This document shows positions 3,031 through 18,189 of a stretch of DNA of 32,653 nucleotides, piece by piece. Made by a program: the position numbers and the translations under genes. Below the pieces are notes generated by a model. It saw only the letters and a list, made by a program, of their open reading frames with translations. It did no database searches and was not told the DNA's origin. This DNA comes from Candidatus Brocadiaceae bacterium (GTDB lineage: Bacteria > Planctomycetota > Brocadiia > Brocadiales > Bathyanammoxibiaceae). The stretch is taken from positions 1 to 32,653 of the forward strand of contig JASEHG010000003.1 in assembly GCA_030018855.1 (NCBI GenBank). The letters are read 5' to 3'. Positions within the stretch are counted from its first letter, which is position 1; the number at the start of each line of letters is the position of its first letter.

Positions 3031-3087
3031 CCAGTCAACGCTGGGCAGGGGCAAGCCCTGCCCCTACCAGTTAACCGGGAAGGGGCC
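3031..3087. repeat. Left arm of a long inverted repeat flanking rnpB (continues P1 outward)
   Basis: CCAGTCAACGCTGGGCAGGGGCAAGCCCTGCCCCTACCAGTTAACCGGGAAGGGGCC is nearly the reverse complement of 3625-3680. Confidence 0.9.
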
Positions 3088-3185
3088 AGGTGGCCGCCCG
3101 TCCGTTCCGCCTCAGGCAGAGCGGACGAGAGGAAAGTCCGAGCTCCACAGGGCAAGGTGGTGGATAACGCCCACCGGGACCCCTG

Positions 3186-3270
3186 CTAGGGGTTAGGGAC
3201 TAGGGACCGGGGATTAGAAAAAGAGATTAAAGACCGCTATCCCCTACCCCCTAATCCCTCACCCCTAGTT
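3186..3270. repeat. Family A hairpin repeat inside rnpB, at the position of stem P9
   Basis: ctaggggttagggactaggg...ctaccccctaatccctcacccctag lies between the P8-like ggtggataacgcccacc and the conserved agggaaagtgccacag. Confidence 0.85.
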
Positions 3271-3316
3271 AGGGGGTCTCAGGGAAAGTGCCACAGAAAA
3301 TATACCGCCCGCCTGG

Positions 3317-3387
3317 CTAGGGGGTAGGGAGTAGGGAGTAGGGAAAAAGATTGCTACCCCCTAACCCCTACTCCCTATCCCCTAGTT
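3317..3387. repeat. Family A hairpin repeat inside rnpB, at the position of stem P12
   Basis: ctagggggtagggagtagggagtaggg aaaaagattgctac cccctaacccctactccctatcccctagtt lies between accgcccgcctgg and taggtgggtaagggtgaaa. Confidence 0.87.
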
Positions 3388-3614
3388 AGGTGGGTAAGGG
3401 TGAAAAGGCGGGGGGGCTAATTAAGGCCCCTTAATGTAAGAGCCCACCGCAGTCCTGGTGACAGGGCTGGCACGGCAAACCCCACCTGGAGAAAGGCTAA
3501 ATAGGGAGGGAAGGAAGTGGCCCGCTTCAGGCGAATAGCCGTCCCTCCGGGTAAGCCGCTAATGGAGGTAGTGGGCAACCACTACCCTAGAGTAATGGCC
3601 ACCCTAGACAGGAC

Positions 3615-3635
3615 TCGGCTTATCGGCCCCTTCCC
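3615..3635 (+). repeat. Direct repeat, copy 1 (inside the rnpB 3' end)
   Basis: TCGGCTTATCGGCCCCTTCCC, identical to 5990-6010. Confidence 0.95.
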
Positions 3636-3680
3636 GGTTAACTAGCTGGGCAGGGCTTGCCCCTGCCCAGCGTTGACTGG
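3625..3680. repeat. Right arm of the long inverted repeat flanking rnpB
   Basis: GGCCCCTTCCCGGTTAACTAGCTGGGCAGGGCTTGCCCCTGCCCAGCGTTGACTGG; see 3031-3087. Confidence 0.9.
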
Positions 3681-7293: not shown

Positions 7294-7337
7294 GATGTAG
7301 GGACAGACCTTTAGGTCTGTTCTGCTTGCTTAGAAAG

Positions 7338-8780
7338 ATGAACCTCACCAATAAAGTCGTAATCATTGGCCTGGATGCCGCCCCTCCTGAACTGGTCTTT
7401 GACCGCTGGCTGGATGAACTGCCCACCATTAAATGGCTCACAGGACACGGGTTATATGGGGAGCTGGAGAGTACCATCCCCTCCATCACCTGCCCCGCCT
7501 GGGCCTCCATGACTACTGGGAAAGACCCTGGACGGCTGGGCATCTACGGCTTCAGGAACCGTACCAGATACGATTACAGTGAGATGGCCTTTGTGGACTC
7601 TAGCTGGGTAAGGGAAGAGACCTTGTGGGATATACTCTCCAGATACGGCCTCAGGTCCATCCTGGTAGGCATACCCCCGAGCTATCCCCCCAAGGCCATT
7701 AACGGCAGGATGGTAAGCTGTTTTATGGCCGGGGACTCACCAGACTATACCTACCCGAGGGAATTCCGTACCGAAGTAGAAGCGCTGACGGGGGGCTACA
7801 TACCAGACGTAAAGGACTTCCGCTCCGGAGACAAAGGCCCTATCCTCAAGACCGTCTACGAGATGACCCAGAGGAGATTTCGCCTGGCAAAGGCCCTCCT
7901 GCAGAGACAGGATTGGGAGCTCTTTATGATGGTGGAGATGGGTACGGATAGGCTCCAGCATGCCTTCTGGAGATACCTTGATGAGGCCCATCCCTCTTAT
8001 TGCCCCGGTACTGAATACGGAGACGCAATACTGGACTATTACAAATATCTTGACAGGGAATTGGGCGAAATCTTGACCCTGATAGAAGGGCGTGCCACCC
8101 TGCTGGTCGTCTCCGACCACGGGGCAAAGAGGATGGAGGGCGGGATATGCGTCAACGAGTGGCTCCTGGCCAACGGTTACCTCAGGCTACTGGAATACCC
8201 GCAGGAGATTACCTCCTTTCAACACCTAAAAGTAGACTGGAGACGTACAGTAGCCTGGGCCCACAGCGGCTACTACGGCAGGGTATTCCTCAACGTAAGA
8301 GGGCGTGAGCCTATGGGCTTACTCCCCCCGCAGGATTACGAAAGGATAAGAAGGGAGCTTGCCCAGGGGCTTGAGGACATCAGAAATGAATGCGGACAAA
8401 GGATAAACACTAGGGCCTTTAGGCCGGAGGATATTTACCCGGAGTGCCGGGGGATTGCGCCCGACCTGCTCGTCTATTTCGGCGACCAATACTATAGGAG
8501 CATAGGCAGTGTGGGCCACAAAAAATTTTGGACCAGGGAGAACGACAACGGTTCCGATGACGCAAACCACTCGCAATATGGTATCTTTGTCTTGTATAAT
8601 GAGGGTTTAATGGATTCCCCCGTAGGGGCACGGCGTGCCGTGCCCTTGAGGAGGAGGCCAGCCATGAACCGTTCTGGTTCAGGGCCAGCCCATATCCTTG
8701 ACGTGGCACCAACGGTGTTAGGATGCATGGGGCTGGAGGTGCCCCTGGATATGAAGGGGAACGCCATAAATCGCAGGTAG
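7338..8780 (+). CDS. Alkaline phosphatase superfamily / type I phosphodiesterase-nucleotide pyrophosphatase-like protein
   Basis: VVIIGLDAAPPELVFDRW..., SITCPAWASMTTGKDPG, LLVVSDHGAKRMEGG, DVAPTVLGCMGLEVPLDMKG. ATG at 7338 preferred over the ORF-track start at 7326. Confidence 0.9.
   Translation: MNLTNKVVIIGLDAAPPELVFDRWLDELPTIKWLTGHGLYGELESTIPSITCPAWASMTTGKDPGRLGIYGFRNRTRYDYSEMAFVDSSWVREETLWDILSRYGLRSILVGIPPSYPPKAINGRMVSCFMAGDSPDYTYPREFRTEVEALTGGYIPDVKDFRSGDKGPILKTVYEMTQRRFRLAKALLQRQDWELFMMVEMGTDRLQHAFWRYLDEAHPSYCPGTEYGDAILDYYKYLDRELGEILTLIEGRATLLVVSDHGAKRMEGGICVNEWLLANGYLRLLEYPQEITSFQHLKVDWRRTVAWAHSGYYGRVFLNVRGREPMGLLPPQDYERIRRELAQGLEDIRNECGQRINTRAFRPEDIYPECRGIAPDLLVYFGDQYYRSIGSVGHKKFWTRENDNGSDDANHSQYGIFVLYNEGLMDSPVGARRAVPLRRRPAMNRSGSGPAHILDVAPTVLGCMGLEVPLDMKGNAINRR
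8622..8650. repeat. Family B palindrome in frame in the AlkP-family CDS
   Basis: GTAGGGGCACGGC-GT-GCCGTGCCCTTGAG read GTA GGG GCA... (VGARRAVPL). Confidence 0.88.
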
Positions 8781-9401: not shown

Positions 9402-9457
9402 GGACAAACCTATGTGTTTGCCCAAAATAATGGGGCAGGTGCAAGACCTGCCCCTAC
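9398..9457. repeat. Family B dimer (two hairpins joined by AAAATAAT)
   Basis: GTAGGGACAAACCTATGTGTTTGCCC-AAAATAAT-GGGGCAGGTGCAAGACCTGCCCCTAC. Its first TAG is the cysC stop codon. Confidence 0.85.
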
Positions 9458-9466
9458 AATAAAACC

Positions 9467-10342
9467 ATGAAGAAGAGCCTGAGAGTCGGGGCAGTGCCCT
9501 ACCTAAATACAAAACCCTTAACTGCGGGGATAGAGGGCGGTAGAGGGGTAGAATTACGCCTTGCCGTGCCCTCCCAACTGCCCGGCCTCCTGGAACGAGG
9601 GGAATTAGACGTGGCCCTCATACCCTCCATAGAATACCTGCGCGGCCGCCCCTTTTTTGTCGTACCAGACACGTCTATTGCCTCCAGGGGGGCAGTGGAA
9701 AGCGTGTTACTCTTCCTGCGCGTCCCCAGGGTAAGGGACATCAAGCGGGTTGCCCTGGATGAATCCTCCCTGACCTCCGCCGCACTGGTCAGGGTAATCC
9801 TCCAGGAGAGGTACGGCCTCGGATTGTCCAGTGTAGAGTATGTCCCCTGGCCCCGTAATCAGGATTTAAATGATACCCAGGCCGATGCAGTACTGGTCAT
9901 TGGGGATAACGCCATGAAGATGGCCAGTAGGGGCACGTTGCAACGTGCCCCTACCACGGGCGTCTACTCTACCCTTGACCTGGGGGCAGAGTGGAAGGCC
10001 CTTACGGGACTCCCCTTCGTCTACGCCCTGTGGGTCACCTCTAAAAAAGGACTGGTAGACAGTACCAGGAGGCTACTCAATGAGGCAAAGAGGAAGGGCC
10101 TGGCGGCCCTCCCCGAGATTGCCCGGAGAGAGGCAAAGAGGCTGGGGCTGGAGCCAGGGTTCTGCCTGAGATACCTCTCTGAGAACATCTGCTATGAACT
10201 GGGGGAAGCGGAGGTCGCAGGGTTGCGGCAGTTCTATCGCTACGCCCTGTCCATGGGCCTGGCCTCGGAAGGAGTTAATCTTGACTTCGGAAATAAGACA
10301 CATATTAGAGAAGGCACTCTCCAGGGAACGGATAGTACCTGA
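9467..10342 (+). CDS. mqnA: Chorismate dehydratase, futalosine menaquinone pathway
   Basis: VGAVPYLNTKPLTAGI, LDVALIPSIEYLRG, IASRGAVESVLLF, TGLPFVYALWV. Confidence 0.93.
   Translation: MKKSLRVGAVPYLNTKPLTAGIEGGRGVELRLAVPSQLPGLLERGELDVALIPSIEYLRGRPFFVVPDTSIASRGAVESVLLFLRVPRVRDIKRVALDESSLTSAALVRVILQERYGLGLSSVEYVPWPRNQDLNDTQADAVLVIGDNAMKMASRGTLQRAPTTGVYSTLDLGAEWKALTGLPFVYALWVTSKKGLVDSTRRLLNEAKRKGLAALPEIARREAKRLGLEPGFCLRYLSENICYELGEAEVAGLRQFYRYALSMGLASEGVNLDFGNKTHIREGTLQGTDST
9927..9954. repeat. Family B perfect 28-bp palindrome in frame in mqnA
   Basis: GTAGGGGCACGTTGCAACGTGCCCCTAC; read A GT|AGG GGC ACG TTG... (SRGTLQRAPT). Confidence 0.93.
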
Positions 10343-11387
10343 GGAGGGCCTGGCCCTCCTCTCCTCCAAGGACCTCCTTGCCCTGGGGAGGACTGCGGAG
10401 GAGGTGTGCAGAAGGCTCCACCCTGAACCTTATCGTACCTATGCCATAGACAGGAACGTCAACTACACCAATATCTGCGTGGCCAGGTGCCGTTTCTGTG
10501 CCTTTTCTAGAGACCTGGATGAGGAGGATGCCTACACAATCAGCGAAGGAGACCTCTTCCAGAAGATAAAAGAGACCGTTGAACAGGGGGGCACCCAGAT
10601 ACTTATGCAAGGGGGTCTCCATCCACATCTGAGGCTAGACTTCTACGAGGGGCTCCTCCGCTCCATAAAAGAGAGGTTCTCCATACATATCCACTCCTTT
10701 TCCCCTCCGGAGATAATCCATTTCTCCAGGCTGGAGGGGCTAACGGTAAGGGAGGTAATCCTGCGGCTGAAGGAGGCGGGGCTGGACTCCATCCCTGGTG
10801 GCGGGGCGGAGATACTTGTGGACCGCTGTCGGGGGGCAGTAAGTCCCAGGAAATATACGGCGGGAGAATGGTTGACCGTCATGCGGGAGGCCCACGGGCT
10901 GGGCATGAAGACCTCTGCCACCATGATGTTCGGTCACGTGGAGACCCTGGAGGAGAGGATAGTCCACATGGACAGGCTCCGCCAGCTACAGGACGAGACG
11001 GGCGGCTTTACGGCCTTCATACCCTGGCCCTTTCAACCCATGCACACCCAGTTAGAGAAGCTCCCGCCCGTCGGGGCATTTGAGTACCTGAAGACCCTGG
11101 CCGTCTCCAGGCTCTATCTGGACAATATCCCGAACGTCCAATCCTCGTGGGTAACACAGGGGGCAAAGATAGGGCAACTGGCCCTAAGGTTCGGGGCCAA
11201 TGACATGGGCAGTACCATGCTGGAGGAGAACGTAGTGCGGGCCGCAGGGGTAAGCTTCCGCATGAGCAGGGAAGAGATAATACGCCTCATAGAAGACCTC
11301 GGCTACCAGGCCCGCCAGAGGGATTTCTACTACCAATTAGTAGATGGTAGGGGCAATCCGCCTGAGGCGGACAGTTGCCCAAAATAA
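10281..11387 (+). CDS. mqnC: Cyclic dehypoxanthine futalosine synthase (radical SAM)
   Basis: NVNYTNICVARCRFCAFSR, GGGAEILVDRCRGAVSPRKYTAGEWLTVMREAH, TSATMMFGHVETLEERI, QDETGGFTAFIPWPFQP. TTG at 10281 preceded by GGAG; overlaps the mqnA end. Confidence 0.9.
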   Translation: MTSEIRHILEKALSRERIVPEEGLALLSSKDLLALGRTAEEVCRRLHPEPYRTYAIDRNVNYTNICVARCRFCAFSRDLDEEDAYTISEGDLFQKIKETVEQGGTQILMQGGLHPHLRLDFYEGLLRSIKERFSIHIHSFSPPEIIHFSRLEGLTVREVILRLKEAGLDSIPGGGAEILVDRCRGAVSPRKYTAGEWLTVMREAHGLGMKTSATMMFGHVETLEERIVHMDRLRQLQDETGGFTAFIPWPFQPMHTQLEKLPPVGAFEYLKTLAVSRLYLDNIPNVQSSWVTQGAKIGQLALRFGANDMGSTMLEENVVRAAGVSFRMSREEIIRLIEDLGYQARQRDFYYQLVDGRGNPPEADSCPK

Positions 11388-14391: not shown

Positions 14392-15603
14392 ATGATAAAC
14401 GTAGACGAGGCCTACCGCATTATATTAGAAAATATCAGCACCCTCCCCATTCAAGAGGTCAACATCAAGGGGGCAGTGGGGTTGTGTCTGGCAGAGGATG
14501 CGGTCTCGGACATAGACATGCCTCCCTTTGACAAATCGTCTATGGACGGCTTCGCCGTCATTGCCGAGGATACCCTCTCTGCCTCGGGCCAACCAGTAGA
14601 ACTGGACGTAATAGAGGGGGTAGCGGCAGGACAGATGCCTCAGAAGAAGGTAGAGAGGGGACAGGCCACCAAGATAATGACAGGGGCGGCACTCCCCCAG
14701 GGAGCCGATGCCGTAATAAAGGTAGAGGATACCGAGCCTGCGGGACTCCGCAAGGTAAAACTCCTGCGGGGCATGAAAAAGGGGGAGAACGTAAGTCCAA
14801 GGGGAGAAGACTTTCAGGCAGGCCAGGTGGTACTCAAGAGGGTGACCGCCCTCAGACCCCAGGAGATAGGCATCCTGGCCATGATAGGGCTGGGAAAGGT
14901 AAAGGTCTATTCCTCCCCCAAGGTAGGCATCAGCTCTACGGGGGATGAACTGGTAGAGGTAGGACGTAAGCCTACTGGAGGCCAGATAAGGGACAGCAAT
15001 AGCCACTGCCTGGCGGCCCAGGTCTCCCTGACCAGGGCGGAGGTGGAATGCTTCGGCACCGCAAGAGATGACCGCAAGTCCCTCATCCACATGATAAAAA
15101 AGGGGTTGAGGAAAGACCTGCTCATCCTCACCGGGGGTGTATCCATGGGGGAGTATGACCTGGTGGTGGGCGTCCTCAAAGAACTGGGGGTCAACCTCTT
15201 CTTTGAGAAGGTGGCAATGAAGCCAGGTAAACCCATAGTCTTTGGAAAGCATTATAAGACCGCCGTCTTTGCCCTGCCAGGTAACCCGGTTGCCACGTAT
15301 GTTTCCTTTGAGCTCTTCGTCCGGCCCGCCATCCGCAAGATGATGGGCTTCACCCAGCTCAGCCGTACGATAGTGAAGGCCCAACTAGAAACCCCCTTAC
15401 GCAGTAGGGGGGAGCGGAGGGAATTCAGGCCCACCTGGCTGCGTCTAGAGGACGGGAGATTTTCTGCCTCTCCAGTGGAATGGCATGGCTCTGCTGACCT
15501 GTTGGGGACTACCAGGGCCAACTCCCTGCTAATAGTCCCGGAGGGCGTGGAGTCCTACTCGGCTGGGCAAGAGGTGGAGGTAATGCTCACGGGTGAGCTC
15601 TAA
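14392..15603 (+). CDS. moeA: Molybdopterin molybdotransferase
   Basis: DMPPFDKSSMDGFAVIAEDT, TKIMTGAALPQGADAVIKVEDTE, ISSTGDELVEVG, ILTGGVSMGEYDLV, KPGKPIVFG, ALPGNPVATYVSFELF. ATG at 14392 preferred, with ggaag upstream. Confidence 0.96.
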   Translation: MINVDEAYRIILENISTLPIQEVNIKGAVGLCLAEDAVSDIDMPPFDKSSMDGFAVIAEDTLSASGQPVELDVIEGVAAGQMPQKKVERGQATKIMTGAALPQGADAVIKVEDTEPAGLRKVKLLRGMKKGENVSPRGEDFQAGQVVLKRVTALRPQEIGILAMIGLGKVKVYSSPKVGISSTGDELVEVGRKPTGGQIRDSNSHCLAAQVSLTRAEVECFGTARDDRKSLIHMIKKGLRKDLLILTGGVSMGEYDLVVGVLKELGVNLFFEKVAMKPGKPIVFGKHYKTAVFALPGNPVATYVSFELFVRPAIRKMMGFTQLSRTIVKAQLETPLRSRGERREFRPTWLRLEDGRFSASPVEWHGSADLLGTTRANSLLIVPEGVESYSAGQEVEVMLTGEL

Positions 15604-17296
15604 ACCAGTGGGTAGGGAGTGGGGGGTAGGGATTAGCAATCTTTTCTCCTACTCCCCACTCCCTACTCCCTACTCCCTAATTCCTAACCCCTGGTCCCTA
15701 ATCTCTACTATCCCGGTTGTCCTCCCCACTGTAGTCTTGCTCGGCATGTCCTTTCCTGGGCCAGACCTGCCCCTGCTGGCCTGGGTGGCCCTGGTACCCT
15801 GGCTCCTCCTGATAGGCTCTGAGGTAGGGGCACGTTGCAACGTGCCCCTGCTCTCCTGGCTCATCGGGATAATCTTCTTTACCGTAAAGCTCTCCTGGCT
15901 GGGCTACGCCACCAATGCAGGCTGGCTCTTACTCAGCTCCTACCTCTCCATCTCCTACCTCCTTTTTGGCATTGCCTGCTCTTACCTCCACAGGAACTCC
16001 GGCCTGCCCCTTGCCCTCCTGGCCCCTTTCCTATGGGTCTCTCTGGAGTACCTCAGGGGCTTCCTCATGACGGGCTTCCCCTGGTTCTACCTCGGCCATA
16101 CCCAGTACAGCTACCTGTCCATCATCCAGATAGCCGACATTACTGGCGCCTACGGCGTCTCTTTCATCATTGTGGCGGTCAATGCCTGCTTTGCCCAGGG
16201 ACTCCTGAGGTGGTGGAACGGTAAGGGGGGACACTTCCTGTTCGCCATCGCCTTTATCTTATTACTGTTCCCTCTATCTTACGGTATGTTCCGCCTGGCG
16301 GGGTTATCCTATCAGGAAGGCCCCAGGCTCTGTATGGTACAGGGGAACATCCTCCAGGACCTAAAGATGGATCCAGACGTTGAGCAGAGGAAGAGCAACC
16401 TCCAGAGGTATCTAGACCTCTCCAGGCTTGTCCTGAGCGAAGCCGAAGGGAAGGTAAGGTCAGAAAAGGTGGATATGATAGCCTGGCCTGAGACCTCTGC
16501 CCCGGGGCTATTGAACCTGGACCCTAAGTTCTGGAGAGAGACCGACCGCTTCTCCCAGACCTCTATCTTTGAGCTGGCAAAGGAACTCCAGACCTATCTC
16601 CTGGTAGGAGGGATAGCCATAGAACCTGGGAAGGGGAATAATTTTGAGGAGAGTACCCTCTATAATAGTGCCTTCCTCTACGGGCCTGACGGTAACCTCC
16701 TGGACAGGTACGACAAACTCCACCTGGTGCCCTTCGGAGAGTACACGCCTCTTAGAGAGGTCTTCCCCTTCCTGAGACATATGGTACCCTACGAGATAGA
16801 CCTCTCCCCCGGGAGCCGTTGGGAATTACTAGAGTTTAAGGGGCGTAGGGGCGACCCGGCGGGTCGCCCTTACAGGTTTGCCACCCTCATCTGTTACGAG
16901 GACACAGTCCCACCCCTGGCCAGGTACTTCACCAGGCAGGGGGCAGACTTCCTCCTGAACATCACCAACGACGGCTGGTTCCATGACAGTCCGGAGCTGG
17001 ACCAGCACCTGGCCATCATGGTCTTCAGAGCCGTAGAGAATCGGATAGGTATGGCCAGGGCCGCCAATACGGGCATCTCCGCCTTTGTGGCCCCCAGTGG
17101 CGACATCTACTCCCTTATAACCCGGAACGGTAAGCGCCGGGAGGTGGAGGGTATCCTGGAAGGCACCATCTTAATAGCCCGTGGAGGGCCCAGTTTTTAT
17201 ACAAGGTATGGCGACCTCTTCAGCCAGTTCTGCCTGTTAGTATCCATTGGCCTGCTCCTGATGCCTACGGTAAAGAGGCTAGGGGTTAGGGAATAG
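15593..17296 (+). CDS. lnt: Apolipoprotein N-acyltransferase
   Basis: N-terminal multi-TM region plus nitrilase domain with candidate catalytic residues in WPETSAPG (Glu), YDKLHLVPFGEY (Lys) and LICYEDTVPP (Cys). GTG start overlaps the moeA stop; exact start uncertain. Confidence 0.94.
   Translation: MSSKPVGREWGVGISNLFSYSPLPTPYSLIPNPWSLISTIPVVLPTVVLLGMSFPGPDLPLLAWVALVPWLLLIGSEVGARCNVPLLSWLIGIIFFTVKLSWLGYATNAGWLLLSSYLSISYLLFGIACSYLHRNSGLPLALLAPFLWVSLEYLRGFLMTGFPWFYLGHTQYSYLSIIQIADITGAYGVSFIIVAVNACFAQGLLRWWNGKGGHFLFAIAFILLLFPLSYGMFRLAGLSYQEGPRLCMVQGNILQDLKMDPDVEQRKSNLQRYLDLSRLVLSEAEGKVRSEKVDMIAWPETSAPGLLNLDPKFWRETDRFSQTSIFELAKELQTYLLVGGIAIEPGKGNNFEESTLYNSAFLYGPDGNLLDRYDKLHLVPFGEYTPLREVFPFLRHMVPYEIDLSPGSRWELLEFKGRRGDPAGRPYRFATLICYEDTVPPLARYFTRQGADFLLNITNDGWFHDSPELDQHLAIMVFRAVENRIGMARAANTGISAFVAPSGDIYSLITRNGKRREVEGILEGTILIARGGPSFYTRYGDLFSQFCLLVSIGLLLMPTVKRLGVRE
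15605..15700. repeat. Family A hairpin repeat at the moeA/lnt junction
   Basis: ccagtgggtagggagtggggggtagggattagcaat...ctactccccactccctactccctactccctaattcctaacccctgg. Confidence 0.85.
15824..15850. repeat. Family B palindrome in frame in lnt (copy 1)
   Basis: GTAGGGGCACGTTGCAACGTGCCCCTG read GTA GGG GCA CGT TGC... (VGARCNVPL). 27 of 28 bases identical to the mqnA copy, but in another frame. Confidence 0.92.
16427..16450. repeat. Candidate dispersed repeat CTTGTCCTGAGCGAAGCCGAAGGG in frame in lnt
   Basis: Encodes LVLSEAEG. I recall this 24-mer type as a widespread repeat in other environmental bacterial genomes; only one copy is seen in this window. Confidence 0.55.
16845..16873. repeat. Family B palindrome in frame in lnt (copy 2)
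   Basis: GTAGGGGCGACCC-GGC-GGGTCGCCCTTAC read CGT AGG GGC GAC CCG GCG GGT CGC CCT TAC (RRGDPAGRPY), just before the catalytic Cys strand. Confidence 0.9.
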
Positions 17297-17546: not shown

Positions 17547-17622
<76 letters not shown>

Positions 17623-18143: not shown

Positions 18144-18189
18144 GAATGGCATTCAAGAGGTCAGGGTTCAAATCCCCTATCCTCCACCA
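18144..18189 (+). pseudogene. Orphan 3' fragment of tRNA-Ala (direct repeat copy 2)
   Basis: GAATGGCATTCAAGAGGTCAGGGTTCAAATCCCCTATCCTCCACCA is identical to 17576-17622 except for one G missing from the T stem. No 5' half. Confidence 0.95.

What the first reader, a model, noticed from the sequence alone, without database searches (positions are those of the whole stretch)
9927..9954. Perfect 28-bp palindrome coding inside mqnA, nearly identical to one in lnt but read in a different frame
Seen: GTAGGGGCACGTTGCAACGTGCCCCTAC in mqnA is read AGG GGC ACG TTG CAA CGT GCC CCT (RGTLQRAP); the lnt copy is read GTA GGG GCA CGT TGC AAC GTG CCC CTG (VGARCNVPL). Same DNA, different peptides: this argues for selection or spread at DNA/RNA level rather than as a protein motif.
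Basis: seen in the sequence. Interest (0 to 1): 0.75.

Follow-up and report, generated by a model that had tools for sequence, protein, structure and literature searches.

The report
Coding hairpin repeat inside mqnA
The 28-letter mirror-image sequence inside this bacterium's vitamin-K-pathway gene mqnA is one of at least 160 related small hairpin repeats in the genome, almost certainly spread by a known kind of transposase (a "double-foot REP"), and it sits in the gene as a tolerated passenger rather than as a protein motif.

Summary
Confirmed: a perfect 28-bp palindrome lies in frame in mqnA, and a one-mismatch copy lies in lnt in another frame. It belongs to a GTAGGGGC(N6-20)GCCCCTAC superfamily: 162 copies in this genome, 198 in a sister MAG, none for the reversed pattern. 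Of 94 classified copies of this sub-family, 34 are inside genes in two frames and none in the TAG frame; in 8 genes the repeat's TAG is the stop codon. MqnA from 27 other genomes lacks the insert. Two sister lineages carry the identical palindrome at the same loop; a third carries an unrelated repeat there. In the same bacteria, TnpAREP/RAYT transposase genes are flanked by such palindromes and carry one in frame inside their own coding sequence; internal and flanking palindromes match in 22 of 41 genes, against 1.9 expected. This fits the published "double-foot" REPs of TnpAREP subclass 2.4 (PMC6006769); intragenic GTAG REPs are also published (PMC3733652). Less expected: at several orthologous sites the inner half of the repeat is exchanged symmetrically while the flanks stay aligned. 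Verdict: real, DNA-level spread supported, known kind of element with an interesting turnover pattern.

The parts
9927..9954 (.). Perfect 28-bp double-foot palindrome (GTAG...CTAC), core ACGTTGCAACGT, in frame xGT|AGG (S-RGTLQRAPT)
   Evidence: DNA hairpin -14 kcal/mol, z -6.5
9467..10342 (+). mqnA (chorismate dehydratase family), host gene of the palindrome
   Evidence: Pfam PF02621 184 bits; PDB relatives 2i6e, 2nxo, 6o9a
15824..15851 (.). Second copy, one mismatch, in lnt, frame GTA|GGG (VGARCNVPL); the G002 orthologue has the perfect form
16845..16873 (.). Third GTAGGGGC palindrome, in lnt, core GACCCGGCGGGTC, frame xGT|AGG (RRGDPAGRPYR); the G002 orthologue carries ACGTTGCAACGT at the same site
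15593..17296 (+). lnt (apolipoprotein N-acyltransferase), host gene of two palindromes
   Evidence: TIGR00546 312 bits
8622..8647 (.). Decayed copy GTAGGGGCACGGCGTGCCGTGCCCTT near the 3' end of a phosphodiesterase-family ORF (7326-8780), frame GTA|GGG
11347..11380 (.). GTAGGGGCAA-TCCGCCTGAGGCGGA-CAGTTGCC: a second palindrome nested in the centre of a GTAGGGGC element, encoding the C-terminal tail of MqnC
9432..9457 (.). Related element GGGGCAGGTGCAAGACCTGCCCCTAC just upstream of mqnA

Best explanation
The palindrome is a double-foot GTAG REP: a short non-autonomous hairpin with the transposase foot GTAG at both ends (GTAG...CTAC). It belongs to the repeats handled by HUH/Y1 TnpAREP (RAYT) transposases of subclass 2.4. 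A copy entered a length-variable loop of MqnA, between the GDNAMK strand and the LDLG motif, probably in the ancestor of two genera. It stayed because the whole event was a multiple of three and did not use the TAG frame. Shown here: the family, its copy number, the frames, the absence from other MqnA, and the association of the superfamily with RAYT genes. Inferred: that TnpAREP moved it as single-stranded DNA, and that the RGTLQRAPT peptide has little effect on MqnA. The same sites are later overwritten by other REP cores or other repeats.
For: Family: 64 ACG-core copies and 162 GTAGGGGC(N6-20)GCCCCTAC copies in this genome; similar numbers in two congeners; 0 for the reversed control. Insertion: 27 MqnA orthologues lack it. 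Transposase link: 41 of 56 RAYT genes of the RRSIRLKGYDYS clade carry a palindrome in frame shortly after the HUH motif; in 22 of 41 the same palindrome (at least 85% identity) lies within 1.5 kb of the gene, against 1.9 expected over 10,000 permutations (maximum 10) and 3.3% for flanks from other genomes. One congener RAYT locus (L218, G001) has ACGGC-core members of this very sub-family inside and on both sides. Published definition of subclass 2.4: double-foot REPs, GGG/CCC stem base, REPs inserted in frame within tnpAREP between HUH and Y (PMC6006769). Tolerance: insertions in other core genes; the Deinococcus MqnA of 2i6e is naturally about 9 residues longer at the same loop.
Against: No RAYT with the exact TTGCAA core was found, inside or beside the gene, in any genome examined. 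The well-assembled congener G002 has 62 ACG copies but its RAYTs carry other cores. The G001 gene L218 contains an assembly gap and a stop. The best match in this genome is cut by contig ends (C4, C314) and carries other cores. Empty-site comparisons do not show a clean 28-bp insertion; the palindrome stands in place of about 10-16 bp, which simple TnpA insertion does not predict. A stable hairpin could also act in the mRNA; this was not tested.
Confidence: 0.82

Rival explanations
1. Protein-level motif: the peptide RGTLQRAPT is a functional element of MqnA.
For: The segment is kept unchanged in a MqnA only 74% identical (G006).
Against: Absent from 27 other MqnA; the same DNA is read VGARCNVPL elsewhere; in congener G002 the loop holds an unrelated, much longer peptide; the DNA as well as the peptide is unchanged.
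Confidence: 0.03
2. RNA or DNA function for the host, such as an mRNA stability hairpin, attenuator or protein-binding site, kept by selection and merely tolerated in genes.
For: Very stable hairpin (RNA window -33.5 kcal/mol, z -4.5). Most copies lie outside or at the edges of genes (60 of 94). REPs have been proposed to affect mRNA (PMC3733652).
Against: About a third of copies are deep inside unrelated genes; the core sequence differs between close relatives at the same site; no common position relative to genes was seen.
Confidence: 0.1
3. Palindrome made and maintained by replication template switching or gene conversion, without a transposase.
For: Perfect symmetry despite multi-base change; empty sites show replacement rather than clean insertion; second palindromes nested in the centre.
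Against: Identical cores recur at dozens of unrelated sites, which needs copying between sites; shared outer arms are only 8 bp, short for RecA recombination (own knowledge); clear association with RAYT genes.
Confidence: 0.15

Closest known systems
Double-foot REP of TnpAREP subclass 2.4 (Quentin et al. 2018, PMC6006769)
   Same: GTAG at one end and its complement CTAC at the other; three G-C pairs at the stem base; cognate transposase flanked by the repeats and carrying them in frame within its own gene after the HUH motif
   Different: Near loop-free perfect palindrome; a large share of copies in ordinary genes; exact cognate transposase for the TTGCAA core not found
GTAG REPs located inside genes (Di Nocera et al. 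2013, PMC3733652)
   Same: GTAG repeats inside unrelated ORFs, TAG used as stop codon, presence in Planctomycetes and Verrucomicrobia; different REPs noted at about the same site of recB in two Xanthomonas
   Different: There GTAG is an unpaired tag at one end; here it is paired with CTAC and the element is symmetric
Rickettsia palindromic elements (RPE), reviewed in PMC2229807
   Same: Palindromic repeats fused in frame in conserved protein genes and in RNase P RNA
   Different: RPEs are 105-146 bp and restricted to Rickettsia; no RAYT link was described there

Membership tests
Double-foot GTAG REP (TnpAREP subclass 2.4) | 5' GT[AG]G and 3' C[TC]AC at the ends of a hairpin | tested here: met
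   Sequence
Double-foot GTAG REP (TnpAREP subclass 2.4) | Stem base of three consecutive G-C pairs (stated in the paper for the canonical long REPs of subclass 2.4) | tested here: met
   GTAG-GGG.../...CCC-CTAC; folded
Double-foot GTAG REP (TnpAREP subclass 2.4) | High copy number, dispersed | tested here: met
   162, 161 and 198 superfamily copies in three congeneric genomes, control 0
Double-foot GTAG REP (TnpAREP subclass 2.4) | Flanks a tnpAREP gene (REPtron) | tested here: met
   Met for the superfamily and for ACGGC-core members (L218). Not found for the exact TTGCAA core
Double-foot GTAG REP (TnpAREP subclass 2.4) | REPs inserted in frame within the tnpAREP gene between HUH and Y | tested here: met
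   41 of 56 clade genes; the class 2 pattern Y---NP reads YIINNP in the alignment
Double-foot GTAG REP (TnpAREP subclass 2.4) | Bound and cleaved as ssDNA by the cognate TnpAREP | not testable with these tools
   needs a biochemical assay
Rickettsia palindromic element | 105-146 bp element, Rickettsia-specific | tested here: not met
   28 bp, in a Planctomycetota genome
Classical insertion sequence or MITE with target duplication | Target-site duplication flanking the insert | tested here: inconclusive
   Orthologous empty sites show replacement of about 10-16 bp and no direct repeat was noticed; few sites, read by eye

The most novel reading that the evidence does not exclude
REP cassette exchange in place: at a fixed genomic site, including inside conserved genes, the inner hairpin is swapped for the core of another REP family (or a second palindrome is nested in its centre) while the GTAGGGGC feet and the flanking gene stay aligned, possibly by TnpAREP strand transfer at the feet. 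A recently expanding core (TTGCAA) would thus overwrite older ones.
Probability: 0.3. Interest if true: 0.65.

Novelty: new member of a known kind. Interest (0 to 1): 0.42.

Why it matters
It explains a recurring class of odd in-frame peptides (RGTLQRAPT, VGARCNVPL, VGAGFKPAPT and the like) as translated transposase hairpins, not protein motifs, and so warns against reading function into them. These genomes hold orthologous sites with empty, old-core, new-core and nested states, which makes it testable how REPs move and whether they replace each other in place; their dissemination mechanism is described as poorly understood (PMC8266576).

Tried and rejected
AlphaFold model of MqnA to place the insert on the surface: only 6 sequences, mean pLDDT 42, not usable; the loop position rests on alignment to solved relatives. 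The RAYTs first found in this genome (L016-L018) were considered as the source and set aside: their flanking repeats start GTAGCGT... or GTAGCCGCAGGC..., not GTAGGGGC. Viral carriage: no exact copy of the 28-mer in the viral contig collection. Literature search for the sequence string itself gave nothing on this element. A strict arm-conservation statistic was dropped because the site filter requires the arms. The idea that a REP inside the transposase gene is new was dropped after finding it in PMC6006769.

Full report
The 28-bp sequence at 9927-9954 is a perfect palindrome inside the mqnA reading frame, and a one-mismatch copy lies in lnt at 15824-15851 in a different frame. None is expected by chance. 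Gene identities hold: MqnA by Pfam, Lnt by TIGR00546. lnt holds a further relative at 16845-16873, and a decayed one lies at 8622-8647.

The organism is an uncultured Planctomycetota MAG. Close relatives found by MqnA are named Planctomycetes/Planctomycetota MAGs, and Candidatus Brocadia sapporoensis falls in the same order. The genome has 64 copies of GTAGGGGCACG(N2-12)CGTGCCCCTAC and 162 of the wider GTAGGGGC(N6-20)GCCCCTAC. Two congeners have 161 and 198, and the reversed-pattern control is zero everywhere.

Fifty listed copies in this genome (49 plus mqnA) and 44 exact copies in the congener G002 were placed relative to genes with a codon-usage score trained on long ORFs. Thirty-four are inside genes: 20 read GTA GGG (VGARCNVPL) and 14 read xGT AGG (RGTLQRAPT, including mqnA). 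None is in the TAG frame, which is partly true by construction. In 8 genes the ORF ends exactly at the repeat's TAG. One third inside genes is well below what random landing in a gene-dense genome would give, so most gene hits are probably removed, but it is far from the purely extragenic placement that the name REP implies. Host genes include TsaD, a ribosomal RNA adenine dimethylase, a CoA ligase, formiminotransferase, a molybdopterin oxidoreductase and a RecG-like helicase.

MqnA shows the history at one site. Twenty-six other genomes of the order and one more distant MAG have a short loop between GDNAMK and LDLG. This genome, congener G001 and G006 (another genus, 74% protein identity) have the identical 28 bp there, with slightly different junctions. 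Congener G002 instead has a different repeat (GAATGCGGA...TCCGCATTC) that makes the loop roughly 20 residues longer than here. The loop lies where solved MqnA relatives vary in length.

What moves it? Genes for Y1/HUH transposases of the RAYT (TnpAREP) type were searched. In one clade (RRSIRLKGYDYS...MPNHxHGII), 41 of 56 genes carry a palindrome in frame within about 40 codons after the HUH motif. In 22 of 41 the same palindrome lies within 1.5 kb of the gene, against 1.9 when flanks are permuted. For our sub-family, the G001 locus L218 has ACGGC-core members inside the gene and on both sides. In this genome a clade member is cut by contig ends (C4 and C314).

This matches a published class. 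Quentin et al. describe TnpAREP subclass 2.4 with 'double foot' REPs, GT[AG]G at one end and C[TC]AC at the other, and with REPs inserted in frame within the transposase gene (PMC6006769). Di Nocera et al. describe GTAG REPs inside genes, TAG used as stop, and REPs in the Planctomycetes group (PMC3733652). The E. coli enzyme of the family processes single-stranded REP in vitro (PMC8266576). Movement by TnpAREP here is therefore inference by membership, not shown.

The unexpected part is turnover at fixed sites. Among 12 sites where this genome and a congener both carry the palindrome and the flanks align (mean flank identity 0.90), 7 have a changed core in at least one relative beyond a single base. 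Five of these carry 5-10 core differences that are wholly or almost wholly mirrored in both arms (for example ACGTTGCAACGT versus GACCGGCCGGTC), one has a minor two-base change and one a length change. The site filter required the arms, so arm conservation cannot be claimed. In a second sample, started from other cores in G001, 1 of 6 shared sites showed a swap and 2 further sites had other sequence, with its own inverted repeat, nested in the centre. Four nested cases were seen in all, plus one in the window at 11347. The first sample was chosen for this core, which may be recently expanded, so the two rates differ for a plausible reason. Recruitment of an existing core from elsewhere fits better than point mutation. 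Whether the transposase, recombination or replication errors do it is open.

Sites that are empty in a relative do not show a clean insertion. The 28 bp stand in place of 13 or 16 bp (L130, L292), giving net gains of 15 and 12 bp. Because 28 is not a multiple of three, only imprecise events can survive inside genes, so these sites are a biased sample.

Noticed in passing
3078-3638: RNase P RNA (RF00010, 256 bits) with two large insertions built of TAGGGAGTAGGG / CCCTACTCCC-type repeats (97 nt in place of 4, and about 70 nt in another hairpin); reminiscent of the Rickettsia palindromic element in RNase P RNA.
   Followed up: partly
15606-15711: The predicted 5' end of lnt is made of the same TAGGGAGTAGGG-type repeat; the true start may lie downstream.
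   Followed up: no
L049 3001-3942 (G002 mqnA): An unrelated repeat with GAATGCGGA / TCCGCATTC units fills the same MqnA loop.
   Followed up: partly
L016, L017, L018: Three other RAYT genes in this genome are flanked by different GTAG palindromes (GTAGCGT[AG]CGAGC..., GTAGCCGCAGGCTTTAGCCTGCG), so each transposase clade appears to have its own repeat head.
   Followed up: partly
17576-17609 and 18144-18177: A 34-nt piece of the tRNA gene at 17547-17619 is repeated about 570 bp downstream, 85% identical.
   Followed up: no
L004, L125, L127 sites: At the same gene-edge site three congeneric genomes carry different repeat types (GTAGGGGC palindrome, TAGTAGACAGTAGTC arrays, others), suggesting shared hot spots.
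   Followed up: partly
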